The notes under the pieces are model-generated. The model was not told the origin of the DNA, did no database searches, and saw only the letters and a program-made list of their open reading frames with translations. A stretch of 33,407 nucleotides of DNA, from NCBI RefSeq assembly GCF_016863315.1, contig NZ_BOOQ01000065.1, positions 1 to 33,407 on the forward strand, written 5' to 3'. Shown piece by piece: positions 2,847-27,693 of this stretch. The first letter of the stretch is position 1, and each line of letters opens with the position of its first letter. This DNA is from Planotetraspora silvatica. Lineage in GTDB: Bacteria > Actinomycetota > Actinomycetes > Streptosporangiales > Streptosporangiaceae. A program made the position numbers and the translations under genes.

Positions 2847-2884
2847 GGGTGACGGGAATCGAACCCGCGCTGTCAGCTCGGGAA
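2847..2884 (-). repeat. tRNA-Gly(CCC) 3' fragment, att copy 1 (flank family III)
   Basis: The minus-strand complement of the tRNA T-arm, variable region and 3' anticodon stem is recognisable, but the acceptor end is altered and one base of the anticodon stem differs (CAGCTCGGGAA). Identity stops in the anticodon loop, as in the other copies. No 5' half of a tRNA follows, so this is an attachment-site relic and not a gene. Confidence 0.8.
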
Positions 2885-2970
2885 GTGCGTGGGTCACGGC
2901 CGTTAGGGGTGTTGACCTGGGCATGCGACCTGGCATGAGTGACCGTGGTTGACCCTTCGTCACCCTGGTT

Positions 2971-2990
2971 AATGGCCCGCTAATGGCCCG
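2971..2990. repeat. Arm-type doublet AATGGCCCG x2, period 11
   Basis: AATGGCCCG at 2971 and 2982, joined by CT. It begins exactly 87 bp to the right of att copy 1. Interpreted as an integrase or excisionase arm site; the same doublet recurs at 24111 at the same distance. Confidence 0.75.
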
Positions 2991-3279
2991 AGAGCCAGCC
3001 TGACTGGCTCAAGGTGGATCGATAGCGGGCGTGGATCTTGTCGGCCGAGCACCGCCACGCTCACGTAACCGGGCGCCAACGTAGGCCGCCAGCTCGTCCG
3101 GTTTTGACAAAACATTTGAGATCAAATATTGGCTCCCGGGACGATGTCGTACTGATGGAGAGTGCGAGGAGGATGGATCCAGGTAAAGGCCTTGTATTCG
3201 CGAGCGGGGCGACGGCTTTCCTCCCGAAGGCGGCGCTCACGAAGACGGAGATACCGCAGGCCTCCCTCCGATCCTGCAC
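2991..3279. other. Upstream region of the LAL regulator
   Basis: Contains an inverted repeat GAGCCAG/CTGGCTC just after the arm doublet and a promoter-like block at 3104-3132. A short frame from ATG 3154 or 3172, ending at 3283 and preceded by GAGGAGG, could encode about 40 residues, but its translation has no recognisable features. Confidence 0.4.
3104..3132 (+). promoter_or_regulatory. Promoter with a palindrome in its spacer
   Basis: A consensus -35 TTGACA (3104-3109) is followed 17 bases later by TATTGG (3127-3132), a weak -10. Between them lies the palindrome ATTTGA-GA-TCAAAT (3114-3127). A protein bound there would block RNA polymerase. The nearest downstream gene is the LAL regulator starting near 3280, so autoregulation or control by another factor is possible. 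Confidence 0.5.
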
Positions 3280-6174
3280 TTGACACGGGCTGACGTACGG
3301 GTGATTTATGGATTTATGGGGCATTCAACCCATGCTGACCGCGAAGCTGTCGACAGGTCCAATTTCTGCCGATCATCGTGGCCTGGTTGGCGTGGCCGCG
3401 CCCGGGAGTGGAAGCTTGTCGTCGGTTTGCTGCAGGCGGCCAAGGTCGGCCGGGGTGGGGTCTTACTGGTTGAGGGCCGGTCGGGCGTCGGAAAGAGTCG
3501 CATGCTCGGCATCACCGCCACCGCGGCAGCGGGGATGGGGCTAGGAGTCGCCCAGGGCGCGGCGGACGAACTGACCCAGCTGATACCGCTGGCCCCGCTG
3601 ACATCGGCGCTCGGGAAATCGGGCCGCGCGCTTCCCGCGGGCGGTCACATGAACATCTGTGGTCCGGCCGATCAGCGACTGCTGCTGGTAGAACAACTGC
3701 AGGGACCGTTGGAGCAGCGGGTGGCTCAGGAACCGATGCTTCTCGCGTTGGATGACGTGCAGTGGGCTGACCCGATAACTCTGCTGGCGTTGCGGTCGAT
3801 GACCAGAGATCTCGCCTCCTATCCGCTCGTCTGGATGCTGTCTCGTACGAGCGGCAGCGGCGACTGTCCGCGCCTCGACTGTCTGTTCGATGTGCTGGAA
3901 CGTGATGGCGCGATCCGGATCACGTTGGAGGCGTTGGACGAGCGAGCAGTGGCAGACGTCGTCACCGACGTCCTCGGGGCAGCGCCCGAACCGGACGTGC
4001 TGGCCCTGGCCGGCATCGTGGACGGCAATCCTTTCCAGCTCGTCGATCTCCTTGAGAAGCTCAAAAGCGAGGGCGTCTTCCAGATCGCCGATGGTCACGC
4101 GCGGATGGCGGCATGCCTGCCGCATGCTCAGGCAGTCACCCAGGAACGCCTGGAGGAGTTGTCCACACGGACCAGGCATCTGCTCCAGTGCGCCGGAATC
4201 TTAGGCCGTTCGTTCTCGGTGAAGGATCTGGCCGAAATGCTCGGCCAATCGACCAATGGTCTGTTGCCGATGCTGGAGGAGGCGACGTCGGCGGGCATCA
4301 TCGAACCCGCCGGGGAGGAGCTCACCTTCCGGCACGATCTGCTGTGGCAGGCGGTGATCGGGACCATCCCCACCCCGGTCCGCCGGTCCCTGCACCACGA
4401 CGCAGGGAAGATGCTGCTCAAACGCGGCGGGTCGGCCGTTCCCGCCGCCGCGCACCTGATTCACAGCGCCGGCCGCGGTGATACGTCCGCACTGCTCGGA
4501 TTGGACCAAGCGGCGCGGGAGGTGCTGCGGTCCTCACCGCAGACCGCCGCCGACCTCGCCCTGCGGGCGCTTGAACTCAGCGGCTCCGCCGACCCTGACT
4601 GGTTCGGTCGCGCCGCCACAGCGGTCGACGCCCTGACGGTGATCGGACGGCTGTCCGAGGCAGCCGATCTTGCCCGTGCCGCACTCGGCAGGGCCCCGCC
4701 TCTGCACGGCCCTCGCCTGCGATGCGCGCTGGCGCACATCCTGCTGCTGAGCGGCCGACCGGCGGATGCGGTATCCGAGGCCGAAAGCCTCCTCGCCCAA
4801 AAAGACCTGCCCGAGGACCTTCGCGGCATCGCCGAATGGACGATGTTCTGGGGGCTTACCTGCCTGAACGACTTCCGGAAAGGACGACAACGAGCGGAAG
4901 CCGTTCTGGCCGACCGCGAGCGGCACGCCGATGCCGCCGTCGTCGGAGCTCTCCTGTTGCTCGCTCGGTTCGCTATGGTCGATGGGCGGATCGCCGACTC
5001 GTTCGCGCATCTACGCGAAGCCTTGCACATCACCGACCGCGGCACCGTCGAAGCCATCCAGCGCCCGTATACGCGCCTGATACTGAGCCTCCACTACAGA
5101 GCCATGCGTGAGTTCGATGCGGCCGACATCGCCATCCAGGCCGCCGAGGAGGAAATCAACGACCTCGGGCTGACCGTGCTCGCCGCACAACCCGCACTGT
5201 TCCGCTCCGTGCTGAATCTGGGCGTCGGTCGACTTGATGACGCCGCCGCCGAGGCTCAGGCCGGGAAAATGATCGCCGAGGAGTTGGGCACGCACGGGTT
5301 CATCCGCGTCGGACTGTCCATGCTCGCTGTCGTTGCCCTGCGGCAGGGTGACCTCGACGCCGCGGTCGGGCACATCGAGCGATGTCAGTCCATCCCCGCC
5401 GCGCCCGAGATGTTGTTCGGATCGGTGTGGGAAAGGTGGGTGATGGCGGCGGTGGCCGAGGCCCAGGGTGATCCCGGGCGGGCGATCGAGATCCTCCACG
5501 CCATTTACACCGACGATGAGGAGCGGCGCTGGGCACTGCTCACGACGCCTCTTACGGCCGCCTGGATGACTCGGCTGGCGCTGGCCGCGGCGAACCGTCC
5601 GTATGCGCAGGCCATCGTTGACACGGCCGAGTACCTGGCCCGAAACAACCCGGACTTCCCCGTCTTCGCCATCACGTTCGCCCACGCCCGCGGCATTTTC
5701 CACCAGGACCCCGACGCGTTGGCCGCCGCCGCTGATCAGCCTGAGCCGTGGGCACGCGCCTTGGTCGCCGAAGACCTCGGCGTCTTGTGGGCCACCACGT
5801 CCGGCGCCGATGCCTCGGCGAAGGCCGTCGACAGCCTGGATGAGGCGCTCGACGGTTATGAGCGCATCGGTGCGCTCTGGGACGTGGCCCGGGTGCGAGC
5901 CCGGCTGCGGGCGCTTGGCGTACGGCGCCGCCACTGGACTCAATCCCAGCGGCCGACCTTCGGATGGGACAGCCTCACCGACACAGAACGCGCCGTCGCC
6001 GGCTTGATCGCCAGAGGGATGACCAACCGCCAGGCCGCCGAGCGGATGTTCCTGTCGCCTCACACGGTGTCCACCCACCTTCGCCGGATGTTCAGCAAAC
6101 TCGACATCGCATCCCGCGCCGAGCTGGCCTGCATCGTTGCCAAAGAATGCCCTGAGCTCATCAAGGGCGCTTAA
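3280..6174 (+). CDS. LAL-type (large ATP-binding LuxR) transcriptional regulator
   Basis: Up to 964 residues from TTG 3280. An N-terminal AAA/STAND-type NTPase domain carries a Walker A (GRSGVGKS, near residues 67-76) and a Walker B (LLALDDVQWAD, near 158-168). A long alpha-helical, TPR-like middle region follows. The C-terminus has a LuxR helix-turn-helix: LTDTERAVAGLIARGMTNRQ, then SPHTVSTHLRRMFSKLDI, near residues 898-957. Such proteins switch on genes for secondary metabolism or sugar use in response to an unknown ligand. The family usually begins with a LVGRxxE block; here it reads WRGRAREW near residue 38, so the true start may be GTG 3301, ATG 3316 or later. No target operon is adjacent on the same strand except perhaps the glycosyltransferase at 6685. 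Family assignment is firm; the start is uncertain. Confidence 0.92.
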   Translation: MTRADVRVIYGFMGHSTHADREAVDRSNFCRSSWPGWRGRAREWKLVVGLLQAAKVGRGGVLLVEGRSGVGKSRMLGITATAAAGMGLGVAQGAADELTQLIPLAPLTSALGKSGRALPAGGHMNICGPADQRLLLVEQLQGPLEQRVAQEPMLLALDDVQWADPITLLALRSMTRDLASYPLVWMLSRTSGSGDCPRLDCLFDVLERDGAIRITLEALDERAVADVVTDVLGAAPEPDVLALAGIVDGNPFQLVDLLEKLKSEGVFQIADGHARMAACLPHAQAVTQERLEELSTRTRHLLQCAGILGRSFSVKDLAEMLGQSTNGLLPMLEEATSAGIIEPAGEELTFRHDLLWQAVIGTIPTPVRRSLHHDAGKMLLKRGGSAVPAAAHLIHSAGRGDTSALLGLDQAAREVLRSSPQTAADLALRALELSGSADPDWFGRAATAVDALTVIGRLSEAADLARAALGRAPPLHGPRLRCALAHILLLSGRPADAVSEAESLLAQKDLPEDLRGIAEWTMFWGLTCLNDFRKGRQRAEAVLADRERHADAAVVGALLLLARFAMVDGRIADSFAHLREALHITDRGTVEAIQRPYTRLILSLHYRAMREFDAADIAIQAAEEEINDLGLTVLAAQPALFRSVLNLGVGRLDDAAAEAQAGKMIAEELGTHGFIRVGLSMLAVVALRQGDLDAAVGHIERCQSIPAAPEMLFGSVWERWVMAAVAEAQGDPGRAIEILHAIYTDDEERRWALLTTPLTAAWMTRLALAAANRPYAQAIVDTAEYLARNNPDFPVFAITFAHARGIFHQDPDALAAAADQPEPWARALVAEDLGVLWATTSGADASAKAVDSLDEALDGYERIGALWDVARVRARLRALGVRRRHWTQSQRPTFGWDSLTDTERAVAGLIARGMTNRQAAERMFLSPHTVSTHLRRMFSKLDIASRAELACIVAKECPELIKGA

Positions 6175-8181: not shown

Positions 8182-8265
8182 ACGAATCGTCCGGCCATTG
8201 TCGTTCTACGACAACCTGACCAGCAGTTCCAGGACTTGCCTGTAGTGGACTTAGAAACAGGCTCT

Positions 8266-8285
8266 AATTGCACGTCAATTGCACG
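8266..8285. repeat. Arm-type doublet AATTGCACG x2, period 11 (left arm)
   Basis: AATTGCACG at 8266 and 8277, joined by TC. It lies to the left of terminator and att copy 2, where the end of an element's integrase gene would be, so it is read as the opposite-arm site. The same motif is seen as a doublet at 27674 and as a single copy near 22354. Confidence 0.7.
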
Positions 8286-8313
8286 GAAGATCGAAATGGC
8301 GCTAAAAAAGATC

Positions 8314-8351
8314 AAGGCCCGGGTCGAGAAACTACCTCTGACCAGGGCCTT
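8314..8351. terminator. Hairpin terminator of att module 2
   Basis: AAGGCCCGGGTC pairs with GACCAGGGCCTT (one mismatch in 12) across a 14-base loop, preceded by a run of A on the left. The same hairpin precedes att copies 4, 7, 8 and 10. Confidence 0.75.
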
Positions 8352-8357
8352 CGTCGT

Positions 8358-8401
8358 TGGAGCGGGTGACGGGAATCGAACCCGCGCTGTCAGCTTGGGA
8401 A
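8358..8401 (-). repeat. tRNA-Gly(CCC) 3' fragment, att copy 2 (flank family I)
   Basis: Complete 3' half on the minus strand: CCA end (TGG at 8358), acceptor strand, T-arm, variable loop and 3' anticodon stem. It ends in the anticodon loop TTCCC. The right flank begins GTCTTTCAACA, as in copies 3, 5, 6 and 9. Confidence 0.85.
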
Positions 8402-8491
8402 GTCTTTCAACAGCATGCGTGCTGACCTGCACAAACGCTGGCCTGGGCATATGTGGGTCGAAGTGAGTGAGTGACGGTCACGTCCCGCTGA

Positions 8492-15206: not shown

Positions 15207-15253
15207 CAAAGGCTAGCCGCCGTACCCAGACCGCGTGGGGACGCTTGAACACG

Positions 15254-15270
15254 TGCTGTCAGCTTGGGAA
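15254..15270 (-). repeat. tRNA-Gly(CCC) att copy 3, truncated core (family I)
   Basis: Only GCTGTCAGCTTGGGAA (anticodon-stem side) remains; the T-arm and acceptor end on the left have been replaced. The right flank GTCTTTCATCACCATGCGGT and everything after it match family I. Confidence 0.7.
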
Positions 15271-15372
15271 GTCTTTCATCACCATGCGGTCTGAGCTGGG
15301 GAAACGGTGACCTGGGCGTATGCCGGTCGAGTAACGGTGAGTCCCCGTGAATCCCCGCTGGTTGCCGACCGT

Positions 15373-15392
15373 ACGGGCACGCAACGGGCACG
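15373..15392. repeat. Arm-type doublet ACGGGCACG x2, period 11
   Basis: Copies at 15373 and 15384 joined by CA, exactly 103 bp from the edge of att copy 3. Confidence 0.75.
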
Positions 15393-15723
15393 GCATGGCA
15401 GCTGAGGGCCGGTGACGGATGGCGATGTGCGGAGGCGTGGCTCGGGGGCTCACAGATCCGAGTCGGCGGCCAGACCCACCCTCCAGACCCTGCCGGTCGG
15501 TCTGCGGCTGGGCGTCGTGCCGCGCTGGTCATCCCAGTGTGGTGGCGCGCCGGACCCCTGAAACCACCTTCGGCCGAGATCCGGTACTTCGGTGGGTATC
15601 ACCATGAGGCCATGAGGCCCGGCAGATCCTTGATCACCAATGAGCGCGTCCGTCGCGGCACGCAGCTTGGGTGTGGTGCTTCCGAGACGCCATGGCCGCC
15701 CGGGTAAAGGGATCCGGGCCTTC

Positions 15724-16257
15724 ATGCGTTATTGGGGCGTGGAGCAAAGAGGACAAGAATTCACCAAGTTCTACACCGCCTCCAAGGATGACTGCCTGCG
15801 GATCGTGCTGGTCAACGTCGGCGACAGACAACTCGCCGAGGACCTGGTGGCGGAGGCGTTCACCCGGGCCTGGACGTCCTGGCGCAAGGTGCGCGAGCAC
15901 CCTGTACCACGCGCCTGGGTGGTACGGACAGCGCTGAACGCCCACGTGTCCTGGTGGAGGCGCCGCCGGCGCGAGCTGACAGTGGACGATCCAACAGCGT
16001 TGACACGCCTGGAGGGCAGCCAGCTGGCGCGTTCGGCGGACCTGGGCCTCGACCAGGCGCTGGTTGCGGCGCTCCGGATGCTTCCGCTCAGGCAGCGCGA
16101 AGTGATCACGCTAAGGGTCTTCTTCGACCTGGATACCGATGCCACGGCGAAGCTGCTCGGCATCTCCCCGGGGACCGTTGGCGCGCACCTGCACCGGGCG
16201 CTGGCCACGCTCCGCACGCAAACACAATCCTTCAGCGACCAGGAGGTCACCTCATGA
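15724..16257 (+). CDS. ECF-type RNA polymerase sigma factor
   Basis: A 177-residue sigma-70-family factor with only domains 2 and 4. Region 2 reads DRQLAEDLVAEAFTRAWTSW, then PRAWVVRTALNAHVSWWRRR, containing the core-binding and -10-recognition helices. Region 4 reads LPLRQREVITLRVFFDLDTD, then LLGISPGTVGAHLHRALATL, the -35-recognition helix-turn-helix. ATG 15724 is used; an in-frame ATG at 15640 would add a non-homologous 28-residue tail. Its stop overlaps the start of the downstream membrane protein (ATGA at 16254), so the two are co-translated. The pair is the cargo of the cassette between att copies 3 and 4. It may alter host gene expression, but its regulon is not visible. Confidence 0.9.
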   Translation: MRYWGVEQRGQEFTKFYTASKDDCLRIVLVNVGDRQLAEDLVAEAFTRAWTSWRKVREHPVPRAWVVRTALNAHVSWWRRRRRELTVDDPTALTRLEGSQLARSADLGLDQALVAALRMLPLRQREVITLRVFFDLDTDATAKLLGISPGTVGAHLHRALATLRTQTQSFSDQEVTS

Positions 16258-16889
16258 ACGACGACGACATGCTGGCGGCAATGCGAAGCTCCCTCACCAG
16301 CACCAAAGATGCCCTCACCCACGTGCACATGGACCAGCGGCCCGAAGCGATCATGGCCCGGGCCCGCGGACGCCGGCTGCGCGGCGTGGCGGGGGTGGGC
16401 ACGGGCGGCCTGGCGCTAGCAATTGGCTTGGCGCTGTCCTTGTCCGGCGGTACGTCTGTGGCGTCCGGCGGCCACCCTGGCGCTCCCAGCAGTTCGTCTG
16501 CCGCCCGGGCGGTCCACGTCAACCTGGCCGCATGGTCGGTCAATACGTCGCCGAACGGCTTGGTGGAGGTGACGATCCGCGAGCTGAAGGACCCAGCGAG
16601 GCTGGCCAAGACCCTGGCTGACGCCGGCGTCCCCGTGGTGCTGACGTCCGGCCCCGTGTGCACATCCGACGACCAGCTGCAGGTCTCCCAGGTGGTGCGC
16701 AAGCTGCCCGGGCCCGGCGGCCTTGTGATGAGCCTCAACCCGAAGGCGATGCCAGCCGGAACGGAACTGGTGATCGGGATCGGCACCCTCCGGATCGGAT
16801 CCGAGCAGGGGCCTGGTGCGGCGTTCGGCCTGCAAAAGAAGGGGTCGCCGCTGAACTGCTCCGGAAAGCCCAAAGTAGCCACCAAGTAG
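16254..16889 (+). CDS. Single-pass membrane protein, putative anti-sigma partner
   Basis: 211 residues. The cytosolic N-terminal part (residues 1-42) is short and ends in the basic stretch MARARGRRLRG. One transmembrane helix follows (about 45-65, GGLALAIGLALSLSGG). A Ser/Ala-rich linker and a soluble extracytoplasmic domain complete it (HVNLAAWSVNTSPNGLVEVT, LAKTLADAGVPVVLTSGPVC, and so on) with two cysteines. The ATGA overlap with the ECF sigma gene and the topology fit a membrane anti-sigma factor, and related proteins commonly follow such sigma genes in actinomycetes. No zinc-binding HxxxCxxC motif is present in the short cytosolic part, so direct sigma binding is an inference. It is followed by the integrase relic and terminator of att module 4. 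Confidence 0.75.
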   Translation: MNDDDMLAAMRSSLTSTKDALTHVHMDQRPEAIMARARGRRLRGVAGVGTGGLALAIGLALSLSGGTSVASGGHPGAPSSSSAARAVHVNLAAWSVNTSPNGLVEVTIRELKDPARLAKTLADAGVPVVLTSGPVCTSDDQLQVSQVVRKLPGPGGLVMSLNPKAMPAGTELVIGIGTLRIGSEQGPGAAFGLQKKGSPLNCSGKPKVATK

Positions 16890-16976
16890 CTCCCATCCCA
16901 CTGGCCGCAAGCCAGGACGGCCAACCACACGACGGTCTGAACCGTGAACCCCGTGCCGGCGGGCTCACGGTCCAGG

Positions 16977-17050
16977 CGGCTATCGCCGACGCGCTGGGCA
17001 GGCTCGCCACGGAGGCGCTGAGCAAGGAAGATCCAGATGGATCGGGCACG
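16977..17050 (+). pseudogene. Tyrosine integrase C-terminal tail relic
   Basis: The plus strand reads AIADALGRLATEALSKEDPD and then GSGT, nearly identical to the end of the integrase relic at 27380-27463 (AIADALGKLAKEALTKEDPD). The stop codon is lost here, and nothing of the catalytic domain remains. The GGGCACG at its end matches the doublet motif of the right arm at 15373, so the two ends of this cassette belong together. Confidence 0.8.
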
Positions 17051-17078
17051 GAAGATCGAAAAGGTGTCCAAAAAGATC

Positions 17079-17116
17079 AAGGCCCGGGTCGGGAATCATC
17101 CTCTGACCTGGGCCTT
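17079..17116. terminator. Hairpin terminator of att module 4
   Basis: AAGGCCCGGGTC pairs with GACCTGGGCCTT, one mismatch in 12, loop of 14. It lies between the integrase tail and att copy 4 and would end both the integrase transcript (plus) and a tRNA transcript (minus). Confidence 0.75.
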
Positions 17117-17122
17117 CTCGCG

Positions 17123-17439: not shown

Positions 17440-17874
17440 TTGTCGATTGAGGTCGATCAGGAGGTCTTCGCCGAGATAGAGGAATACATCTCTCATGAAA
17501 CGGTGATCATTGTCGGCGCGTCCGATCCTCGTGCAGCGGGGTACGGCCTTCTCCAGGCAGCCCGACGCTTCTCTTTTGTCGCTGAAGATGGGCGGGAAGT
17601 GAGCGTTGAGGAGGCGGAGTACGGTGATCTCTATACGCCGAACTATGTTTCGGACATACGCCTTGCACCCCGGGGCCCCTGGTTGTACGTGGATTGCAAG
17701 GGCTACGTCCCGCCGGCGATGGGCGAACGGATGATCGCGATCCTGGTCGAGGAGCTCGAACGAGTGGGTGTGAGCGGACGTATTGAGGTGCCCTCTCTCG
17801 ATGAGTTGAACGAGTATGTGCCGGCAATGTATTTGTTCCATGGCCTAAAGTTCTCGGTGATACCCTTCCCCTGA
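17440..17874 (+). CDS. Hypothetical 144-residue cassette protein
   Basis: Starts at TTG 17440 with a well-placed GGAG upstream (MSIEVDQEVFAEIEEYISHE); TTG 17410 in the same frame is an alternative. The protein is acidic and mixed alpha/beta: TVIIVGASDPRAAGYGLLQA, then FVAEDGREVSVEEAEYGDLY, then a strand WLYVDCKGYVPPAMGERMIA and VPSLDELNEYVPAMYLFHGL. There is no signal peptide or membrane segment, so it should be cytosolic. The family is not recognised; its size, acidity and solitary setting recall orphan immunity proteins. It fills the whole cassette between att copies 4 and 5, and its stop lies 16 bases before att copy 5. Confidence 0.7.
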   Translation: MSIEVDQEVFAEIEEYISHETVIIVGASDPRAAGYGLLQAARRFSFVAEDGREVSVEEAEYGDLYTPNYVSDIRLAPRGPWLYVDCKGYVPPAMGERMIAILVEELERVGVSGRIEVPSLDELNEYVPAMYLFHGLKFSVIPFP

Positions 17875-17890
17875 CCTGAGCCTTCGCGAG

Positions 17891-17934
17891 TGGAGCGGAC
17901 GACGGGAATCCAACCCGCGCTGTCAGCTTGGGAA
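17891..17934 (-). repeat. tRNA-Gly(CCC) 3' fragment, att copy 5 (flank family I)
   Basis: Full length with several base changes in the acceptor and T-arm (GCGGACGACGGGAATCCAAC). Only the right half of the usual terminator (GACCTGAGCCTT) precedes it. The right flank GTCTTTCACCACCATGCGGT is family I. Confidence 0.85.
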
Positions 17935-18036
17935 GTCTTTCACCACCATGCGGTCTGAGCTGGGGAAACGGGGACCTGGGCGTATGCCGGTCGAGTGACC
18001 GTGAGTCCCCGTCATTCCCCGCTGGTTGCCGACCGT

Positions 18037-18056
18037 ACGGGCACGCAACGGGCACG
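18037..18056. repeat. Arm-type doublet ACGGGCACG x2, period 11
   Basis: Copies at 18037 and 18048 joined by CA, 103 bp from the edge of att copy 5. Confidence 0.75.
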
Positions 18057-21972: not shown

Positions 21973-22391
21973 GCTCTTCCGTCCTGTTAGATGCACGAGC
22001 TCACCCGGCCTGATCGGCACGATCTGCCCGCGGTGAAGACGCCCTGCAGCCTACCAAGGGCCGCCGGCTGGGCCAGATCAGAGCGACAGACCATGGGCCA
22101 CAACAGGTTGACAAAATCGACGATTTCGCAGCCATGGGCCCGTTCGTGTTTGAGAGAGCCCAGGACGAAGCGGCGCTTGCGGCTGTGCCCGAGTTCCGTA
22201 CTCAGGAGCAGCGCGAGGCTCCGGTGGGGGGTTCTCGGCGATGGCATGCTTCCGGCGACCCCGTAGGTATCCCATGCAGTCGCGTAGCAGCGGCCGAGTC
22301 GGTTGGGGTGCGACGACGAGGGCGGCTCGGCGGTGGTCCTAGTCCCCGTGGGCTAATTGCACGCACGATCGAAATGATGTCGAGAAAGATC
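21973..22391. other. Upstream region of hemE and left side of att module 7
   Basis: The hemE promoter should lie here on the minus strand. No gene is supported. A TTGACA followed by the palindrome AAATCG-A-CGATTT sits at 22108-22126 on the plus strand. A single AATTGCACG half-site lies near 22354, just before the terminator of att copy 7. Confidence 0.45.
22108..22126 (+). promoter_or_regulatory. TTGACA with adjoining palindrome
   Basis: TTGACA (22108-22113) is directly followed by AAATCG-A-CGATTT (22114-22126). The arrangement resembles 3104-3132, but no acceptable -10 is found 17 bases on (GCCATG), and no plus-strand gene follows closely. It may be an operator serving hemE from the other strand. 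Confidence 0.3.
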
Positions 22392-22429
22392 AAGGCCCGG
22401 GTCGGGAATCATCCTCTGACCTGGGCCTT
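22392..22429. terminator. Hairpin terminator of att module 7
   Basis: AAGGCCCGGGTC and GACCTGGGCCTT, the same hairpin and loop as at 17079. Confidence 0.75.
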
Positions 22430-22435
22430 CGTGTG

Positions 22436-22479
22436 TGGAGCGGGTGACGGGAATCGAACCCGCGCTGTCAGCTTGGGAA
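22436..22479 (-). repeat. tRNA-Gly(CCC) 3' fragment, att copy 7 (flank family II)
   Basis: Perfect 3' half from the CCA end to the anticodon loop. The right flank TCGGCTAGTGATCTACCCTC is shared with copy 4. Confidence 0.88.
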
Positions 22480-22582
22480 TCGGCTAGTGATCTACCCTCT
22501 GCGAGCTGGGGAACAGGGGGTGCAGCTCAGGCGTGGTCGAGTCCCCGTGACTTCCCGTGAGTCCCCGCTGATCGCCGTTCAA

Positions 22583-22602
22583 TCTGGCACGCATCTGGCA
22601 CG
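22583..22602. repeat. Arm-type doublet TCTGGCACG x2, period 11
   Basis: Copies at 22583 and 22594 joined by CA, exactly 104 bp from the edge of att copy 7. Confidence 0.75.
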
Positions 22603-22724
22603 GTGATCAAGCGGCGCTCGGGGGGCGTTGTGCCGTGTCTGAGGTGCAGGCCAACATGTCCCGCATGAATGAGGGAACCTTGCGTTCTGTGTCGTCGTGG
22701 CGCGCCAGAAATTCAGCGCTCTAC

Positions 22725-22955
22725 TCAGGATCGTCTCCGTATACCAATGGAGACGTCTCCGAGAGCGTCGTTCCAGAAAGAGTCGGAGTCCTCGATCGCC
22801 GCAGGATCGATCGCGAGAAGCTCCAACCTCAGACGCTCCTCGACAAGGTCGTCCTGCCCGGCCAGCTCGCTGTAGGTGACGCGCGGGTTCTCCGGTGAGG
22901 GGCGTACAACCGCCGCCTGCGCCCCGACCAGGTGGACGTACTCCTGTGAGAACGG
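22725..22955 (-). pseudogene. 5'-truncated hypothetical gene
   Basis: The minus strand has an open frame between stops at 22956 and 22725. It reads QEYVHLVGAQAAVVRPSPEN, then PRVTYSELAGQDDLVEERLR, LELLAIDPAAIEDSDSFWND and ALGDVSIGIRRRS. The composition (acidic helices, few Arg/Ser runs) looks coding, but there is no ATG/GTG start with a ribosome site. It is probably the C-terminal end of a protein whose front was removed. The family is unknown. It lies in the cassette between att copies 7 and 8, upstream of and divergent from the RTX gene. Confidence 0.5.
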
Positions 22956-23026
22956 TCACACAACAAAATGCATGCGCCGGGAGTCATATACGAAAAAGGA
23001 CCCGCTAATGCCTCATGGAGGCTGTA

Positions 23027-23875
23027 ATGCCCTCTCCCCTCGTCAGCCGCCGGGTGACACGCACCGCATCGGCGCTCACGCTGGCTCTCGCCACGGGACT
23101 GTCCGTTCCGATCGTCCTGGCCACCACAGCAAGCGCCGCGACGCCGTCGGCCACCGCCGCGGTCAACGGCGCTCTTTTTTACAAGGCCGCCTCGGGCCAG
23201 GCCAACAAGGTGACCATCACCGAGTCGTTGACCAGCGACCACACGGCCATCACGTATGTGATCGACGACGTCGTCCCGATCCAGGCGAAAACCGGCTGCG
23301 CCCACCCCGCCGCCACAGACCACACCCGGGTCTCCTGCAAGGTCGCCCTCCCGGGCGCTCCGAACAGGTACGACACCTTGCGGATGGACCTCGCCGACGG
23401 CAACGACATCGTCGCCTTGAACAACACCACCGGCCAGTCCTACTACTTCAACACGATCTACCTTGGCATCGGCAAGGACAGGCTGACCGACACCGGCAAG
23501 GTCGACGGCAACTTCGTCTTGGGCCAGGCGGGCGACGACACCATCACGGTGGGCGAGGACGCGACGGTCTCCGCCGGTGACGGCAACGACACGGTCTACG
23601 CCAGTGGCTACGTCATCGTGGACGGCGGCAAGGGCAACGACGTGGTCCGTGGCGGCACCGGCAGGCAGGTCCTGTCCGGCGGCGACGGCAACGACAGGAT
23701 CTACGGCGGGACCGGCAGCGACGTGCTGTACGGAGGTAAGGGCAACGACGTCCTGTACGGCAACAGCGGCGATGACGAGCTGCACGGGAACAGCGGCAAC
23801 GACAAGCTGTACGGCGGCCCCGGCAAGGACAGGTTCTCCGGCGGCACCGGCAGGGACGCCATTCATCAGAGCTGA
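23027..23875 (+). CDS. Secreted RTX-repeat (hemolysin-type calcium-binding) protein
   Basis: 282 residues from ATG 23027, which has GGAGG five bases upstream; the in-frame ATG 23015 is less well placed. A Sec signal peptide is evident: two Arg near the start, a hydrophobic ALTLALATGLSVPIVLA core and a TASA-AT cleavage site near residue 38. A beta-rich domain with a Cys pair (GCAHPAATDHTRVSCKVALP) follows. The second half is a run of at least six nonapeptides of the GGxGxDxLY kind, for example GGKGNDVLYG and GNSGDDELHG, which fold into a calcium-binding beta-roll. Actinomycetes lack a type I RTX system, so this is a Sec-exported surface or extracellular protein. The short passenger has no recognised catalytic domain. 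It is cargo between att copies 7 and 8. Confidence 0.88.
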   Translation: MPSPLVSRRVTRTASALTLALATGLSVPIVLATTASAATPSATAAVNGALFYKAASGQANKVTITESLTSDHTAITYVIDDVVPIQAKTGCAHPAATDHTRVSCKVALPGAPNRYDTLRMDLADGNDIVALNNTTGQSYYFNTIYLGIGKDRLTDTGKVDGNFVLGQAGDDTITVGEDATVSAGDGNDTVYASGYVIVDGGKGNDVVRGGTGRQVLSGGDGNDRIYGGTGSDVLYGGKGNDVLYGNSGDDELHGNSGNDKLYGGPGKDRFSGGTGRDAIHQS

Positions 23876-23936
23876 CGGTTCTCACCGCCCAGGGAACTGC
23901 CCGGCACGCGAGTGAGAAACAAGCCCAACAAAGATC

Positions 23937-23974
23937 AAGGCCCGGGTCGGGAATTGTCCTCTGACCTGGGCCTT
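23937..23974. terminator. Hairpin terminator of att module 8
   Basis: AAGGCCCGGGTC and GACCTGGGCCTT again, followed by T. It lies downstream of the RTX gene and may terminate its transcript. Confidence 0.75.
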
Positions 23975-23980
23975 TGCGTG

Positions 23981-24110: not shown

Positions 24111-24130
24111 AATGGCCCGCTAATGGCCCG
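24111..24130. repeat. Arm-type doublet AATGGCCCG x2, period 11
   Basis: Copies at 24111 and 24122 joined by CT, exactly 87 bp from the edge of att copy 8. Motif and distance are identical to those of att copy 1. Confidence 0.75.
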
Positions 24131-24494: not shown

Positions 24495-25016
24495 ATGAAC
24501 ATGACGTTTCACATCTCCCCAGAAGCGGATGACCTTGCCACCACTCCCGGAGGCATCTACGTACCCGTCAACGGCGGGCGTACCAAGTGGTTTTCCGGCG
24601 ACGTTTATTCGGTGAAGCTGACGGCCGCGCAGACGAAAGGATCGCTGGGTGTCGTGGAAGCCTCCGTTCCGCCAGGCGGCGGCCCTGTAGCACACACCCA
24701 TGCCGACCAGGACGAGACGTTCTACCTGCTTGCGGGAGAACTCGAGTTCCTGGACGGTGATAGGACGTTCACCGCAGGGGTCGGTGACCTGGTCCACTGC
24801 CCGCGCGGCGTGCGCCACCGCTTTAAGAACGTCGGACTCCACACAGCCAGGATGCTGTTCTTCTACACACCTGGAGGCTCCGAGGGATTGTTCTTGGACG
24901 GCGGCGACGACCCGGAGCCGGGCGTCCAGGTCCCGACCTGGGGCCCAGAACGCTTCCAAGGGCACATGCTCGACCTCTTCGCGAAGTACGGCCTGGAGGC
25001 GTTGCCTGAAGGCTGA
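24495..25016 (+). CDS. Cupin-domain protein
   Basis: 173 residues from ATG 24495 (ATG 24501 is an alternative), preceded by ACAGAGG. The cupin motif 1 is visible as PVAHTHADQDETFYLLAGEL: His, His and Glu are metal ligands. Motif 2 follows as GDLVHCPRGVRHRFKNVG, with the fourth ligand His. Both metal-site motifs are complete, so it is likely a metal-binding beta-barrel related to quercetin-dioxygenase-like cupins. The C-terminal part (VQVPTWGPERFQGHMLDLFA) forms extra helices. Substrate and activity are unknown. It is single-gene cargo between att copy 8 and the IS256 and tRNA-Tyr relics. Confidence 0.88.
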   Translation: MNMTFHISPEADDLATTPGGIYVPVNGGRTKWFSGDVYSVKLTAAQTKGSLGVVEASVPPGGGPVAHTHADQDETFYLLAGELEFLDGDRTFTAGVGDLVHCPRGVRHRFKNVGLHTARMLFFYTPGGSEGLFLDGGDDPEPGVQVPTWGPERFQGHMLDLFAKYGLEALPEG

Positions 25017-25049
25017 ACGTCCCCGCGGAGCATGGTGACGTCCCCTAGG

Positions 25050-25350
25050 GTGGTGTAACTCCAAGCTGGTGAAGCAGCCCCGGACATGGGGCGAGCCATC
25101 GTGTGACGGTCAGCGAGTTCCCGACCAAAGGTTCTCGCGGAGGACATCACACGATGGCTCTGGATCAGTCTGCCCTGCTCGACCTGTTGGAGTCTTTGAA
25201 AGCCGCCGACGCCGACGATGCCATCCGCCACGCTCTGTAAGCAGTGCTGTAAGCGTTGATCGAGGCAGAGGCGACCGCTTTGATCGGCGCCGCCTCGCAC
25301 CAGCGCACCGATCAACGCAGTACGCACCGCAACGGGCACCGAGACAGGCT
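25050..25350 (+). pseudogene. IS256-family left end and transposase N-terminus, dead
   Basis: The terminal sequence GTGGTGTAACTCCA (25050) is followed at ATG 25154 by MALDQSALLDLLESLKAADA, then DDAIRHAL, stop, AVL, stop, ALIEAEATALIGAASHQRTD and RNGHRDRL. This is the well-known IS256-type N-terminus. In both places where a glutamine would be expected (HALQxVLQALIEAE) the codon is TAA. The sequence breaks off after about 65 residues. The C-terminal relic at 10617-11224 belongs to the same family but need not be the same copy. Confidence 0.85.
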
Positions 25351-25446
25351 GCTTGCAATATACGCGCAATGATCTTGGTGGCGGGACCCGGCGCGCAGGG
25401 GCATGTGGCAGGTCAGGATCTATGAGCGGACGGAAAAGGTCACGTG

Positions 25447-25501
25447 CTGTAAAACCGTCGGCTCAGCCTACGCAAGTTCGAAACTTGCACCTGCTACACC
25501 A
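25447..25501 (+). repeat. tRNA-Tyr(GTA) 3' fragment, att relic
   Basis: The plus strand reads CTGTAAAACCGTCGGCTCAG, a long-variable-arm segment, then GCAAGTTCGAAACTTGC (T-arm with a perfect 5-bp stem) and ACCTGCTACACCA with a CCA end. Anticodon GTA and the class II variable arm indicate tRNA-Tyr. The 5' anticodon strand does not pair (ACGTG against ACCGT), so an intact tRNA is not formed. A GTGGCAG at 25405 could pair with the acceptor strand CTGCTAC, but the total length would be about ten bases too long. Confidence 0.65.
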
Positions 25502-25506
25502 GCCAA

Positions 25507-25548
25507 AAGAGGCCCCTGATCAGCAGAGATGCCGGTCGGGGGCTTCTT
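25507..25548 (+). terminator. Terminator after the tRNA-Tyr relic
   Basis: AAGAGGCCCC pairs with GGGGCTTCTT (one G-U), followed by TG and T. A complement of this kind commonly follows a tRNA gene, so the relic may have brought its own terminator. Confidence 0.65.
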
Positions 25549-25597
25549 TGTTCATGATCCGTGAGCGACCGTGATTCCCCGCTGTTTCCCGTGGGAT

Positions 25598-25616
25598 ATG
25601 GCACGCCTGTGGCACG
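25598..25616. repeat. Arm-type doublet TGGCACG x2, period 11
   Basis: TGGCACG at 25599 and 25610, preceded by GTGATTCCCCGCTG-like arm repeats. It follows the tRNA-Tyr relic and its terminator, about 97 bp from the CCA end. Confidence 0.65.
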
Positions 25617-25697
25617 TGATCAAGCTCGTACCCATGCGCGAGAGGTGCTCCGTGAGCCTTCTGTTTACAAGGTCCCCAAACGATCTCCAACGGAGCC

Positions 25698-26234
25698 CTA
25701 CCAGCCGGCACCGGTCTGCCAGCGCTGAACCCATTCGATGAAGCCGATGGCTTCTGGACCGGGGTAGGGGGAGGCGCCGACGTCGGCAACAAACCAGATC
25801 TTCCCGCGTTGCGTGCCGGTGAGCACCAGGAGCCAGTATGAGAGCTCATCGTCTGTGCCCAAGACGATGGAGCCGTGGTTGTAGACGTCGGCGATGCGTT
25901 GGTCGGAATCAGGTGTGGAGTCGATTTCGTCCTCCCAGTGCCATGCGTGGTCGAGAGGGAAGGCGGCCCCCGGGATGCGATCTCCCTGGTCAGGCCAACC
26001 CGGTGGAAGCCAGCCGAGGGGCAGGAGGCCGCCATCCTCAGGGGGGCCCAAGGAGGAACCATTGGCGACCTCGGCGATGAACGTGCGATAGGGCTCAGGC
26101 AGGCGGGCACCGTTCTCGCCCTCCCAGGCTGCAACGCCTTCTAGTCCTAACGGGGGCTCTCGCCACTCAGCGGGAAACGCGGCCTGAAGCGCTTCGAGGT
26201 CCCCGGTAAGGGACGCGTCATTGGTTGCATCCAT
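25698..26234 (-). CDS. SMI1/KNR4 (SUKH) family protein
   Basis: 178 residues from ATG 26234. The SUKH pattern is visible: LEALQAAFPAEWREPPLGLE, then GVAAWEGENGARLPEPYRTF, IAEVANGSSLGPPEDGGLLP, and later IVLGTDDELSYWLLVLTGTQ and RGKIWFVAD. The E..LG..LP..Y..F....NG arrangement is diagnostic. SUKH proteins commonly act as immunity proteins against polymorphic nuclease toxins. No toxin gene lies beside it, so it would be an orphan immunity protein. The frame continues upstream to 26504 only through att copy 9. It is transcribed leftwards between the tRNA-Tyr relic and att copy 9. Family is firm; protection against a specific toxin is an inference. Confidence 0.85.
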   Translation of the reverse strand: MDATNDASLTGDLEALQAAFPAEWREPPLGLEGVAAWEGENGARLPEPYRTFIAEVANGSSLGPPEDGGLLPLGWLPPGWPDQGDRIPGAAFPLDHAWHWEDEIDSTPDSDQRIADVYNHGSIVLGTDDELSYWLLVLTGTQRGKIWFVADVGASPYPGPEAIGFIEWVQRWQTGAGW

Positions 26235-26342
26235 GGCCCAGTGGTACCAGATGCCTCTGCGGGACGCCTCACGGGACCAAGCGCCGACAACAAGCAGTGT
26301 CCGGGTCGCGAGACCGCCCCTGACCTGGTCTTTCGCGATGAT

Positions 26343-26383
26343 GGCGGGTGACGGGAATCGAACCCGCGCTGCCAGCTTGGGAA
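26343..26383 (-). repeat. tRNA-Gly(CCC) 3' fragment, att copy 9 (flank family I)
   Basis: The acceptor end is altered (GGCGGGTGAC without TGGAGC), T-arm intact, one base change in the anticodon stem (GCCAGCTT). The usual terminator to the left is degenerate (GACCTGGTCTTT). The right flank GTCTTTCAACACCATGCGGT is family I. Confidence 0.85.
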
Positions 26384-26485
26384 GTCTTTCAACACCATGC
26401 GGTCTGAGCTGGGAAAAGGCTGACCTGGGCGTAGGCGGGTCGAGTGACCGTGAGTCCCCGTGATTCCCTGCGGGTTGCCGACCGT

Positions 26486-26505
26486 ACGGGCACGCAACGG
26501 GCACG
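26486..26505. repeat. Arm-type doublet ACGGGCACG x2, period 11
   Basis: Copies at 26486 and 26497 joined by CA, 103 bp from the edge of att copy 9. Confidence 0.75.
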
Positions 26506-26523
26506 GCCCAGCATCAGGACCGT

Positions 26524-26991
26524 CTATGCCATGTCCGGCCGATCATGCTCCTGCGAGGGAACTAGCAGGATGTTGCCCAGGTCCCCGCACCTGCGGTGCC
26601 ACCACGGCCAGGTCTTCGGGGCGTGCGGGTTGGGCAGGGTGCGCGCCAGGAAGTCACAGTCGAGGTCTTTCACGATTGACGCGATTTCCCGAGCTGCCCG
26701 TCTGTCGAGGGCAGTGATGGCGCAATCGATGAGAAGTCGGTCGTCCCAGAGGTCGTATCCGGGGAGGTGAGGTTTCGGCAGGTAGAGCAGCCGCCCAGGA
26801 TGACGTAGGAAGAGTCGCCAGCGGAGGATGGCATCTTCGATCCGCCGGGCAGGCAGGCCGCGTTCAGCCTCGAAGCGAGCAACTTTGCGACGCGTGTGAG
26901 GTGAGAGTTCCGATGGTCGGCGCCGATATTCCAGCAGGTGGGATCGGCAGATGGCATCCAGACGTAGAGCAGCCGCCGACTTGCGGGGCAT
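26524..26991 (-). CDS. Hypothetical 155-residue basic cassette protein
   Basis: ATG 26991 has an AAGAAGAG ribosome site and gives MPRKSAAALRLDAICRSHLL. ELSPHTRRKVARFEAERGLP, RLLYLPKPHLPGYDLWDDRL and LIDCAITALDRRAAREIASI follow, and WPWWHRRCGDLGNILL lies near the end. It is rich in Arg, Trp and Pro and is probably helical. A CDFLARTLPNPHAPKTWPWW stretch near the C-terminus is distinctive. I do not recognise the family. The upstream extension to 27234 runs antisense through the integrase relic and is rejected. It is the only cargo of the cassette between att copies 9 and 10, whose two ends carry matching GGGCACG arm motifs. Confidence 0.7.
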   Translation of the reverse strand: MPRKSAAALRLDAICRSHLLEYRRRPSELSPHTRRKVARFEAERGLPARRIEDAILRWRLFLRHPGRLLYLPKPHLPGYDLWDDRLLIDCAITALDRRAAREIASIVKDLDCDFLARTLPNPHAPKTWPWWHRRCGDLGNILLVPSQEHDRPDMA

Positions 26992-27019
26992 GACTCTTCT
27001 TTCGCGGGTAGCGATCTCC

Positions 27020-27463
27020 GTCGAAAATTCTACTGTGAAGCCCACCGCGGAGCGGCAGCAGGCCGGCAAGCGCATCGTCTCCGTGCCCGAACTCCTCCTG
27101 CCGGATTTCCGGACGCCCCTGAACACGTACGCGGGGGAGGGGGATGAGGGCCTGGTGTTCATCGGGCCGAAGGGCGCCCAGCTACGGCGGACGAACTTCA
27201 CCCGGACATGAAGCAAGGCGATCAGCGCAGCCAAGCTTACGGGCTTCCACTTTCATGATCTGCGGCACACGGGAAACACCTTCGCCTCGCAATCCGGTGC
27301 GACTCTGCGAGAGCTAATGAACCGCATGGGCCACTCGACCACGCAGGCCGCGCTGATCTACCAGCACACCGCCATGGAGCGCGACCGGGCCATCGCCGAT
27401 GCGCTGGGCAAGCTCGCCAAGGAGGCGCTGACCAAGGAAGATCCAGATGGATCGGGCACGTAA
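27020..27463 (+). pseudogene. Tyrosine integrase, 5'-truncated with a nonsense mutation
   Basis: About 145 codons of the catalytic domain remain, in one frame. Early on it reads RIVSVPELLLPDFRTPLNTY and LVFIGPKGAQLRRTNFTRT. A TGA follows where Trp (TGG) is usual, then SKAISAAKLTGFHFHDLRHT, LRELMNRMGHSTTQAALIYQ and HTAMERDRAIADALGKLAKE, ending with TAA at 27461. The HxxR box (HDLRH), the GHS box and the tyrosine nucleophile (ALIYQH) are intact, but the first catalytic Arg and the arm-binding N-terminus are missing. It belongs to the integrases of actinomycete elements and points at att copy 10, the normal layout. Its last codons contain the left-arm half-site GGGCACG. Confidence 0.9.
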
Positions 27464-27471
27464 CGGGCTCT
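27454..27471. repeat. Left-arm half-sites GGGCACG/GGGCTCT, period 11
   Basis: GGGCACG at 27454 and GGGCTCT at 27465, overlapping the end of the integrase relic. They match the ACGGGCACG right-arm doublet at 26486 of the same cassette. Confidence 0.5.
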
Positions 27472-27499
27472 GAAGATCGAAAAGGTGTCCAAAAAGATC

Positions 27500-27537
27500 A
27501 AGGCCCGGGTCGGGAATCATCCTCTTACCTGGGCCTT
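27500..27537. terminator. Hairpin terminator of att module 10
   Basis: AAGGCCCGGGT pairs with ACCTGGGCCTT (one mismatch) around the usual loop. It directly follows the integrase relic. Confidence 0.75.
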
Positions 27538-27543
27538 TGTTAT

Positions 27544-27587
27544 TGGAGCGGGTGACGGGAATCGAACCCGCGCTGTCAGCTTGGGAA
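27544..27587 (-). repeat. tRNA-Gly(CCC) 3' fragment, att copy 10 (flank family III)
   Basis: Perfect 3' half with CCA end. The right flank begins GTGTATGGATCACGGCTCGT, like copies 1 and 8. No intact tRNA-Gly gene is found anywhere in the window; by the orientation it should lie further right. Confidence 0.88.
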
Positions 27588-27673
27588 GTGTATGGATCAC
27601 GGCTCGTAAGGGGGCTGACATGGGCTTCGAGCCGGTCATGAGTGACCGTGATTGACCTCTCTTCACCCTCCCT

Positions 27674-27693
27674 AATTGCACGCTAATTGCACG
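27674..27693. repeat. Arm-type doublet AATTGCACG x2, period 11
   Basis: Copies at 27674 and 27685 joined by CT, exactly 87 bp from the edge of att copy 10. Confidence 0.75.

What the first reader, a model, noticed from the sequence alone, without database searches (positions are those of the whole stretch)
2847..27693. Array of ten tRNA-Gly(CCC) att remnants in 25 kb
The 3' half of one tRNA gene recurs ten times on the same strand, each copy with the same right boundary inside the anticodon loop (TTCCC) and none with a 5' half. This is the expected product of repeated site-specific integration into one tRNA gene, each event leaving a copy. Ten copies in 25 kb, separated by 0.8-7 kb of cargo, is unusually dense. 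The cassettes amount to a tandem set of cis-mobilizable-element-like units. Two further tRNA relics (Pro, Tyr) show that other integrases used the same zone.
Basis: partly seen in the sequence, partly recalled or inferred. Interest (0 to 1): 0.88.

Follow-up and report, generated by a model that had tools for sequence, protein, structure and literature searches.

The report
Cassette array anchored on tRNA-Gly gene
Next to one tRNA gene, soil actinobacteria stack small gene packets that mostly lost their own insertion enzyme yet appear to be cut and rejoined at a copied piece of that tRNA, so genes are gained, lost and shared between genera in an integron-like way.

Summary
Ten same-strand sites in the window carry the 3' half of tRNA-Gly(CCC), two of them only part of it. 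Each is followed by an arm of about 120 bp; nine of the ten arms end in tandem repeats of about 10 bp. The intact tRNA lies on another contig (C57), beside a full integrase and RepSA/FtsK genes: a pSAM2-like AICE (actinomycete integrative conjugative element), whose other end is very probably window 27544.

The array is a stack of integrative elements (accretion), mostly reduced to integrase-less cassettes. Three integrase clades with different arm repeats share one core. In P. phitsanulokensis four adjacent cassettes are absent exactly between two cores, and the rightmost element appears as a 1.6-kb deletion form. A 780-bp single-gene cassette without integrase or recognisable second arm occurs in 11 genomes with mostly different neighbours; its breakpoints lie in about 12-14 bp of the anticodon arm, and it is more conserved than adjacent chromosomal genes.

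So 'CIME-like array from repeated integration' is right in kind. But it is widespread in Streptosporangiaceae, and at least one cassette moved rather than merely decayed. Accretion and CIMEs (cis-mobilizable elements) are known; density, one-armed cassettes and the shared core make this a new variant. Excision was not tested.

The parts
2847..3002 (+). att site 1: core plus P arm, cde type (AATGGCCCG x2)
   Evidence: nhmmer cde model 144 bits; core 38/44
8256..8490 (+). att site 2: P' arm (AATTGCACG x2), hairpin, core 44/44, truncated a-type P arm without the terminal repeats
   Evidence: nhmmer pp 145 bits, a 100 bits
15245..15392 (+). att site 3: anticodon-side part of core plus a-type P arm (ACGGGCACG x2)
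   Evidence: nhmmer a 134 bits; 14993-15404 has a 95% identical copy on contig C68
17039..17289 (+). att site 4: P' arm part, core, b-type P arm (TCTGGCACG x2)
   Evidence: nhmmer b 162 bits, pp 131 bits; left border of the four-cassette indel
17864..18056 (+). att site 5: core 41/44 plus a-type P arm
   Evidence: nhmmer a 162 bits
19805..19940 (+). att site 6: about 14 bp of core plus a-type P arm
   Evidence: nhmmer a 119 bits from model position 31
22326..22601 (+). att site 7: P' arm (one AATTGCACG), hairpin, core 44/44, b-type P arm
   Evidence: nhmmer b 158 bits, pp 139 bits
23902..24141 (+). att site 8: P' arm part, core 44/44, cde-type P arm
   Evidence: nhmmer cde 167 bits, pp 135 bits; right border of the indel
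26276..26505 (+). att site 9: hairpin relic, core 39/44, a-type P arm
   Evidence: nhmmer a 162 bits, pp 78 bits
27428..27704 (+). att site 10: P' arm, core 44/44, cde-type P arm (AATTGCACG x2)
   Evidence: nhmmer cde 168 bits, pp 141 bits; probable left end of the AICE that ends at the tRNA on C57
17123..23980 (+). block of four cassettes present here and precisely absent from P. phitsanulokensis
   Evidence: hybrid junction in L076 at 5957: left flank 93% to window 16600-17122, right flank 86% to window 24025-24200
26930..27412 (+). 3' remnant of a tyrosine integrase gene (matches C57 integrase residues 262-424; broken)
   Evidence: tblastn 43%
22436..23980 (+). cassette with an RTX-repeat protein gene (23015-23875)
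   Evidence: PF00353
23981..27543 (+). two cassettes: cupin (24501-25016) with SUKH protein (25698-26234, minus); then a cassette with integrase remnant; most of both about 98% identical and in the same order in P. phitsanulokensis
15227..17122 (+). cassette with sigma-70-family factor (15724-16257) and following ORF (16254-16889)
   Evidence: PF08281, PF04542
28964..33178 (+). Lamassu-like cargo (LmuA 28964-30664, LmuC 30661-31236, LmuB 31238-33178) in the rightmost element
   Evidence: PADLOC LmuB 1.2e-101, LmuA 1.5e-21, LmuC 2e-7

Best explanation
The window is the tRNA-near part of an accretion array on tRNA-Gly(CCC). SHOWN: (1) three clades of tyrosine integrase, with different arm repeats, share one core that starts at the anticodon loop; full integrase genes lie in some tRNA-proximal and a few internal units. 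(2) RepSA, FtsK and integrase genes sit at the intact tRNA on C57, and a 1.6-kb unit of P. phitsanulokensis matches window 27544-28278 at one end and C57 6643-7281 at the other. (3) One block of four cassettes is present or absent between two species with both borders at cores. (4) At least one integrase-less single-gene cassette recurs across genera with changed neighbours and breakpoints inside about 12-14 bp of the core. INFERRED: an element integrates at the anticodon loop and restores the tRNA with its own core; internal deletion removes backbone, integrase and often P'; later elements insert between the old one and the tRNA. Integrases of resident or incoming elements then recombine pairs of cores, so that runs of cassettes, alone or joined to an autonomous element, are excised, deleted or carried to other hosts by AICE transfer.
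For: Ten sites. Intact tRNA with integrase, RepSA (8.5e-103) and FtsK on C57. Both ends of that element match one unit of P. phitsanulokensis, 91% over 739 and 91.5% over 639 aligned positions. Hybrid junction at a core. Of seven near-full-length integrase ORFs, the six with a classed P' repeat fall in clades that agree with the class (a 2, b 2, d 2); the seventh (G013), unclassed by the strict motif rule, groups with a at 0.884. Arm classes at the two ends of a unit agree in 16 of 31 scorable units against 9.8 expected, p = 0.014. Of 104 closed units of 300 nt or more, 6 have at least 85% of an integrase by tblastn, 29 a fragment, 69 none. 780-bp cassette: 28 of 341 family genomes have a match, 11 of them near full length at 83-100% (G013 is the query); att models match on both sides in 8 of the 11; no two of the 11 share more than 108 nt of flank directly beside it at matching positions; identity 85.6-92.9%, above dcd in 10 of 10 genome pairs and above pit in 6 of 6.
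Against: In 15 of 31 scorable units the two arms belong to different integrase clades, so many units are fusions rather than one element. The first version of that test with five classes gave 13 of 31 against 7.4 expected, below the permutation maximum of 18. Of 15 closed tRNA-proximal units, 12 lack a full integrase. No excised circle or attP junction was seen; reads were not available. The C65-C57 link is inferred: the contig ends do not overlap. Homologous recombination between arrays could move some cassettes. Right neighbours of the 780-bp cassette are not wholly unrelated: G013 and G377 share 108 nt (84%) just behind the arm, and G013 and G383 share 382 nt (81%) about 0.75-0.83 kb further on. 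In G255 and G286 the right half-core is degenerate and only weak partial att matches are found.
Confidence: 0.82

Rival explanations
1. Pure decay: whole AICEs stacked up one after another and each shrank in place; small cassettes never moved after losing their integrase, and sharing between genomes is common descent.
For: Integrase remnants in 24 of 89 internal units; the blocks shared with contig C21 of P. phitsanulokensis keep their order; one AICE is seen in a full and a deleted state.
Against: The 780-bp cassette is closer between genera than adjacent chromosomal genes in 16 of 16 comparisons, its tree splits genus g6 (G074 pairs with G047 of g44, support 0.997), and its flanks mostly differ.
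Confidence: 0.2
2. Homologous recombination between arrays, using the repeated cores and arms as homology, shuffles the cassettes; no integrase acts on the integrase-less units.
For: Arms of one type are similar over about 120 bp and occur in many copies.
Against: At the right end of the 780-bp cassette the shared sequence stops at TCAGCTTGGGAA, and the neighbours begin with a, b or cde arms that are unlike each other; that leaves about 12-14 bp of homology.
Confidence: 0.15
3. An integron-like system: cassettes defined by core plus P arm alone are true non-autonomous units, captured and shuffled in trans by the AICE integrases.
For: Of 109 cores found by core sequence alone, 94 keep a full P arm and 51 a full P' arm (45 both, 49 P only, 6 P' only, 9 neither; exact p = 2e-9). 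Mostly one- or two-gene cargo, including two recognisable toxin-type genes with partners in neighbouring cassettes of G019.
Against: P' lies on the integrase side, so deletions that remove the integrase would take it anyway; a unit is only counted if its cores survive. No in trans reaction was observed.
Confidence: 0.35
4. Assembly artefact: repeated att sequences collapsed or mis-joined.
For: The genome is a 117-contig draft, and one P. kaengkrachanensis contig begins with an inverted copy, which I dropped.
Against: Same arrangement inside long contigs or near-complete chromosomes: G034, G378, G383, G283, G151, G019.
Confidence: 0.03

Closest known systems
CIMEs and accretion at ICE sites (Streptococcus thermophilus ICESt1 family; IME/CIME review PMC5704250, passages read)
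   Same: Integrase-less units between att sites, derived by deletion, stacked by site-specific integration, mobilised with a neighbour.
   Different: Here ten sites in 25 kb, units down to about 0.6 kb, three integrase clades on one core, and units that often keep only one arm.
AICE accretion in Streptomyces (tRNA-Arg array, PMC9513070; tandem AICEs in Frankia and S. avermitilis, PMC3218068; passages read)
   Same: Actinomycete conjugative elements at a tRNA gene, different integrases at one site, defective elements and a remnant between repeats.
   Different: In the passages read, one to three elements plus a remnant, or two in tandem; here gene-sized cassettes, one of them shared between genera.
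Dehalococcoides ssrA genomic islands (PMC3146451, passages read)
   Same: Tandem islands bounded by copies of the 3' end of one RNA gene; 15 islands without integration module, called possible CIMEs.
   Different: Serine recombinase, tmRNA gene, copies within 100 kb; no one-arm gene cassettes described in the passages read.
Acinetobacter dif (pdif) modules (PMC7885321, PMC13141974; listing and start of abstract only)
   Same: Small modules between short recombination sites, shuffled by recombinases encoded elsewhere.
   Different: XerC/D sites on plasmids; here a tRNA-derived core with arm repeats on the chromosome.
Chromosomal integrons (PMC11551772, listing and start of abstract only; attC biology recalled)
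   Same: Arrays of small gene cassettes, some with toxin-antitoxin-like genes (for integrons recalled).
   Different: Phage-type integrases, tRNA-derived core, cargo on both strands (25 against 14), growth next to a tRNA.

Membership tests
CIME (cis-mobilizable element), internal units | bounded by att sites of an integrative element on both sides | tested here: met
   104 closed units of 300 nt or more in 22 genomes; window sites. Units are defined by these sites, so this is met by construction; the sites themselves are real
CIME (cis-mobilizable element), internal units | no own integration gene | tested here: met
   86 of 89 internal units lack a full integrase; 0 of 57 internal units up to 2 kb have one
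CIME (cis-mobilizable element), internal units | no own transfer genes | tested here: inconclusive
   30 window ORFs scanned gave no FtsK or Rep match; other ORFs and relatives not scanned systematically
CIME (cis-mobilizable element), internal units | derived from an ICE/AICE by deletion, retaining attL and attR | tested here: met
   Shown for one element; integrase fragments in 24 of 89 internal units; 62 of 89, the 780-bp cassette among them, show no integrase trace
CIME (cis-mobilizable element), internal units | mobilised in cis by an element at the same site | not testable with these tools
   needs excision and transfer assays
AICE, rightmost element (window 27544 to C57 7281) | pSAM2-type Rep, FtsK-type translocase, tyrosine integrase at a tRNA 3' end | tested here: met
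   RepSA 8.5e-103, FtsK_SpoIIIE 4e-13, Phage_integrase 5.6e-16 on C57; integrase stop 93 nt from the core
AICE, rightmost element (window 27544 to C57 7281) | one continuous element between att sites | tested here: inconclusive
   Contigs not joined; same arm class at both ends and a homologous 1.6-kb unit with both ends
integron | recombination sites are attC hairpins next to an IntI integrase | tested here: inconclusive
   Sites are tRNA-Gly 3' halves with arm repeats and the integrases found are phage-type at the tRNA, which speaks against it; attC and IntI were not searched with models
integron | cassettes read in one direction | tested here: not met
   25 ORFs same strand as cores, 14 opposite, in integrase-less units up to 3 kb of 21 gene-called loci
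dif/pdif modules | 28-bp XerC/XerD sites as borders | tested here: inconclusive
   Borders are tRNA-Gly(CCC) sequence, which speaks against it; Xer sites were not searched

The most novel reading that the evidence does not exclude
A tRNA-anchored, integron-like cassette system: non-autonomous single-gene cassettes that need only the anticodon-arm core and one (P) arm are inserted into and excised from internal cores of the array in trans by three AICE integrase clades, giving a family-wide exchangeable gene store. Cassettes like the 780-bp one, whose right half-core could not restore the tRNA, would be confined to internal sites.
Probability: 0.35. Interest if true: 0.82.

Novelty: new variant of a known kind. 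Interest (0 to 1): 0.62.

Why it matters
It gives a natural record, probably ordered by age from the tRNA outwards, of how conjugative elements turn into small movable gene packets. It shows that a single gene can spread between actinobacterial genera with tRNA-site breakpoints and without its own integrase. The open question of whether decayed CIMEs remain mobile becomes testable with defined, sub-kilobase substrates and three integrases that share one core but have different arms. It also accounts for varied cargo beside this tRNA (toxin-type genes, a Lamassu-like system, metabolic genes).

Tried and rejected
Chance matches: rejected. Assembly artefact: rejected on long contigs and near-complete chromosomes; the inverted start of one P. 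kaengkrachanensis contig (L079 plus strand) was dropped; it was still listed but formed no closed unit. A matched-arm test with five classes was weak; merged to three classes it is modest. Retention of the P arm is biased because sites were found by core-plus-arm models; it was repeated with core-only detection, leaving out cores under 36/44 and cores within 180 nt of a locus start or 220 nt of its end. An early reading that sites at 15227 and on C68 share a left neighbour but differ in the arm (note) was dropped: the copies are 95% identical across the arm too. The 780-bp cassette looked non-coding at first because the codon model missed it; it has one ORF of 171-179 aa in the five copies first compared, with no Pfam match for the one copy scanned. 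Integrases counted as at least 85% are by coverage; the one in L096 has a stop inside. Plasmid search with the C57 integrase: 83 of 72,556 records match, best 77% in an 11.85-Mb Nonomuraea record, the other 82 under 60%; no free form of this element recognised. Names: 24 stretches of named genomes hold core plus a-type arm; the genus Planotetraspora follows from contig lengths shared; that the species may be P. silvatica is only by elimination among named species. Papers: eight searches; no title or abstract start in their listings, most of them capped, describes this array, and Planotetraspora with genomic island returned 0 papers. The library lacks most subscription papers, so absence from print is not claimed.
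Full report
WHAT IS THERE. The window is the whole of contig C65 (33,407 bases) of an 8.66-Mb, 117-contig draft genome (contig length). Ten sites on the + strand carry the 3' half of tRNA-Gly(CCC). A core-only scan gives nine with 31-44 of 44 matches against at most 27 in 20 shuffles, and profile models add the tenth at 19805. Nine cores end at TTGGGAA, the complement of the seven-base anticodon loop; the one at 2841 ends at TCGGGAA. No intact tRNA is in the window. The intact gene is on C57 at 7237-7310, and further partial copies lie on other contigs.

ANATOMY OF A SITE. Right of the core lies an arm of about 120 bp that ends in tandem repeats of ACGGGCACG (type a), TCTGGCACG (b), or AATGGCCCG, AATTGCACG or AATGGCACG (c, d, e); nine of the ten window sites have such repeats, the truncated arm at 8358 does not. 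Left of many cores lies a second arm (P') with similar repeats, then a GC-rich hairpin, then the core. These have the layout of arm-type integrase sites; that they bind integrase is inferred. Seven near-full-length integrase ORFs end 66-95 nt from a core. They form three clades. In the six with a classed P' repeat the clade agrees with the class: a in G019 and G089, b in G034 and G002, d in G000 and G074. The seventh, in G013, has an unclassed P' and groups with a at 0.884.

THE TRNA END. C57 carries, in order, ORFs with UTRA, FtsK_SpoIIIE, RepSA (8.5e-103) and Phage_integrase matches, then a d-type P' arm, the core and the intact tRNA. Window 27544 has a d-type P arm and is followed by a Lamassu-like LmuA/LmuC/LmuB set at 28964-33178. 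A 1,643-bp unit of P. phitsanulokensis matches window 27544-28278 at 91% at its left end and C57 6643-7281 at 91.5% at its right end. So the two contigs very probably hold the two ends of one AICE, and the relative is an internal-deletion form of it. The contig ends do not overlap, so this remains an inference.

UNITS BETWEEN CORES. In 22 genomes (own plus 21 relatives, mostly chosen for high copy number) I found 160 att remnants and 104 closed units of 300 nt or more. By tblastn coverage, 6 of the 104 have at least 85% of an integrase (not always in an open frame: the L096 copy has a stop), 29 a fragment, 69 none. Of 15 closed tRNA-proximal units three have a full integrase; of 89 internal units three do. 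None of the 57 internal units up to 2 kb has one. With core-only detection, of 109 cores 45 have both arms in full, 49 only P, 6 only P', 9 neither. This asymmetry fits selection for P-arm cassettes, but it also fits deletions that start on the integrase side. Arm classes at the two ends of a unit agree in 16 of 31 scorable units (9.8 expected, p = 0.014) and disagree in 15, so a good part of the units are fusions.

GAIN AND LOSS AT CORES. Searching window 1-20000 and 20001-33407 in the four sister genomes shows no long colinear copy among the listed matches; homologous blocks are scattered over several contigs. On contig C21 of P. phitsanulokensis, which holds its tRNA-Gly(CCC), the shared blocks (1097-1640, 15655-16980, 23930-28278) keep the window's order, while others lie elsewhere (1895-2745, 98%, on C13). 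At its core L076:5957 the left flank is 93% identical to window 16600-17122 and the right flank 86% identical to window 24025-24200, while the non-corresponding flanks align at 50% and 52%. Thus four cassettes (17123-23980) are present in one and absent in the other, with both borders at cores. Beyond the next two shared cassettes and the left end of a third, the two arrays differ towards the tRNA, as expected if new elements enter there.

A CASSETTE THAT MOVED. A 780-bp cassette has a b-type P arm, one ORF of 171-179 aa in the five copies first compared, no integrase fragment and no recognisable P' arm. Searched in 341 genomes of the family, 28 match at E up to 1e-20, 11 of them near full length at 83-100% identity, the query copy in G013 included. 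Of these 11, eight have att-model matches on both sides, G073 on one side clearly, and G255 and G286 only weak partial ones. The right half-core (in G013 AATAGAGCGATCTGCATTGTCAGCTTGGGAA) is shared with small changes; TCAGCTTGGGAA is intact in eight of 11. The arm that follows is, by model in the eight, type a in six, b in one (G081) and cde in one (G179). Flanks mostly differ. The exceptions are 108 nt (84%) shared by G013 and G377 just behind the arm, 382 nt (81%) shared by G013 and G383 further right, shorter stretches, and on the left att-like or longer stretches at non-matching distances, up to 524 positions at 71%. In the five genomes compared, cassette identity (85.6-92.9%) exceeds that of dcd, beside the tRNA, in 10 of 10 pairs and of pit in 6 of 6. 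In the cargo tree G074 groups with G047 of another genus at 0.997. I read this as horizontal movement with breakpoints inside about 12-14 bp. Its degenerate half-core could not rebuild the tRNA, so it should sit only at internal sites or travel joined to a neighbour; that is inference. Other cassettes are shared between genera over most of their cargo, but often not up to the left core.

CARGO. Among 30 window ORFs scanned: glyoxalase, metallo-hydrolase, AAA/LuxR regulator, RibD_C, PMT_2, amidohydrolase, transposase fragment, LysE, MFS, sigma factor, uroporphyrinogen decarboxylase-like, RTX repeat, cupin, SUKH, Cap4-nuclease-type and AAA proteins; the rest without a match or with weak ones. 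In G019 four successive units of 0.9-2.4 kb carry an HTH gene; a Gp49-like gene with an HTH gene; a PIN-domain gene with a small unmatched partner; and a DUF6247 gene with a small unmatched partner plus a further 381-aa ORF. Only the second and third have a recognised toxin-type family. The DUF6247 pair recurs in the unit next to the tRNA in G047. Among 50 cassette proteins 38 Pfam families matched; of the 25 shown, 15 matched one protein each.

HOW COMMON. With up to 3 mismatches in a 31-bp core, 324 of 341 family genomes have a match, the intact tRNA included; by hand count from that table 61 have five or more, and the window's genome has the most, 15. The sampled genomes outside the family have at most two. 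Near-complete chromosomes show the same clusters, with a few copies far away, and G151 has 13 sites in 30 kb.

VERDICT. The array is real and comes from repeated site-specific integration plus internal deletion. This is accretion with CIME-like units, known from streptococci, Streptomyces and Dehalococcoides (PMC5704250, PMC9513070, PMC3146451; passages read). What goes beyond those passages is the density of gene-sized, often one-armed, integrase-less cassettes, the three integrase clades sharing one core, and the movement of at least one such cassette between genera. Whether integrases act on the one-armed cassettes in trans is the open and testable point.

Noticed in passing
window 19249-19410: A second att family: 3' half of tRNA-Pro followed by an arm with GTGGTCCCCAG repeats; 11 matches, itself included, to parts of it in the own genome and three near-complete copies within 8 kb of P. 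kaengkrachanensis C15. It may form arrays of its own.
   Followed up: partly
window about 25446-25501 and 25524-25615: A tRNA-Tyr-like 3' half (read by eye) next to a b-type arm without core, perhaps a trace of another integration site.
   Followed up: no
window 28964-33178: Lamassu-like operon (LmuA, LmuC, LmuB) of lower GC (about 0.55-0.59) as probable cargo of the tRNA-proximal AICE.
   Followed up: partly
window 8561-9141 and 27747-28330: Two copies (96-97% identical in two blocks) of the segment behind two different sites: the same DNA under an a-type arm and under a d-type arm.
   Followed up: no
window 20653-20777: A P' arm with hairpin but no core: a fused or eroded border inside a unit.
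   Followed up: no
L022 (own genome C41 128001-148000), sites at minus 9506 and 10718: A similar cassette at tRNA-Gly(TCC); 600 of 987 nt of its cargo are 97% identical to sequence in a CCC-type array of P. mira, suggesting a switch of target tRNA.
   Followed up: no
G034 C1 6973289 and 6974792 (L142): Two core copies with arms 5.7 Mb (by coordinates) from the tRNA in a single-contig chromosome, with no tRNA gene in the 20 kb fetched: a displaced or secondary array.
   Followed up: partly
L079 (P. kaengkrachanensis C31 1-3300): Contig start holds exact inverted copies of neighbouring sequence, probably an assembly artefact.
   Followed up: partly
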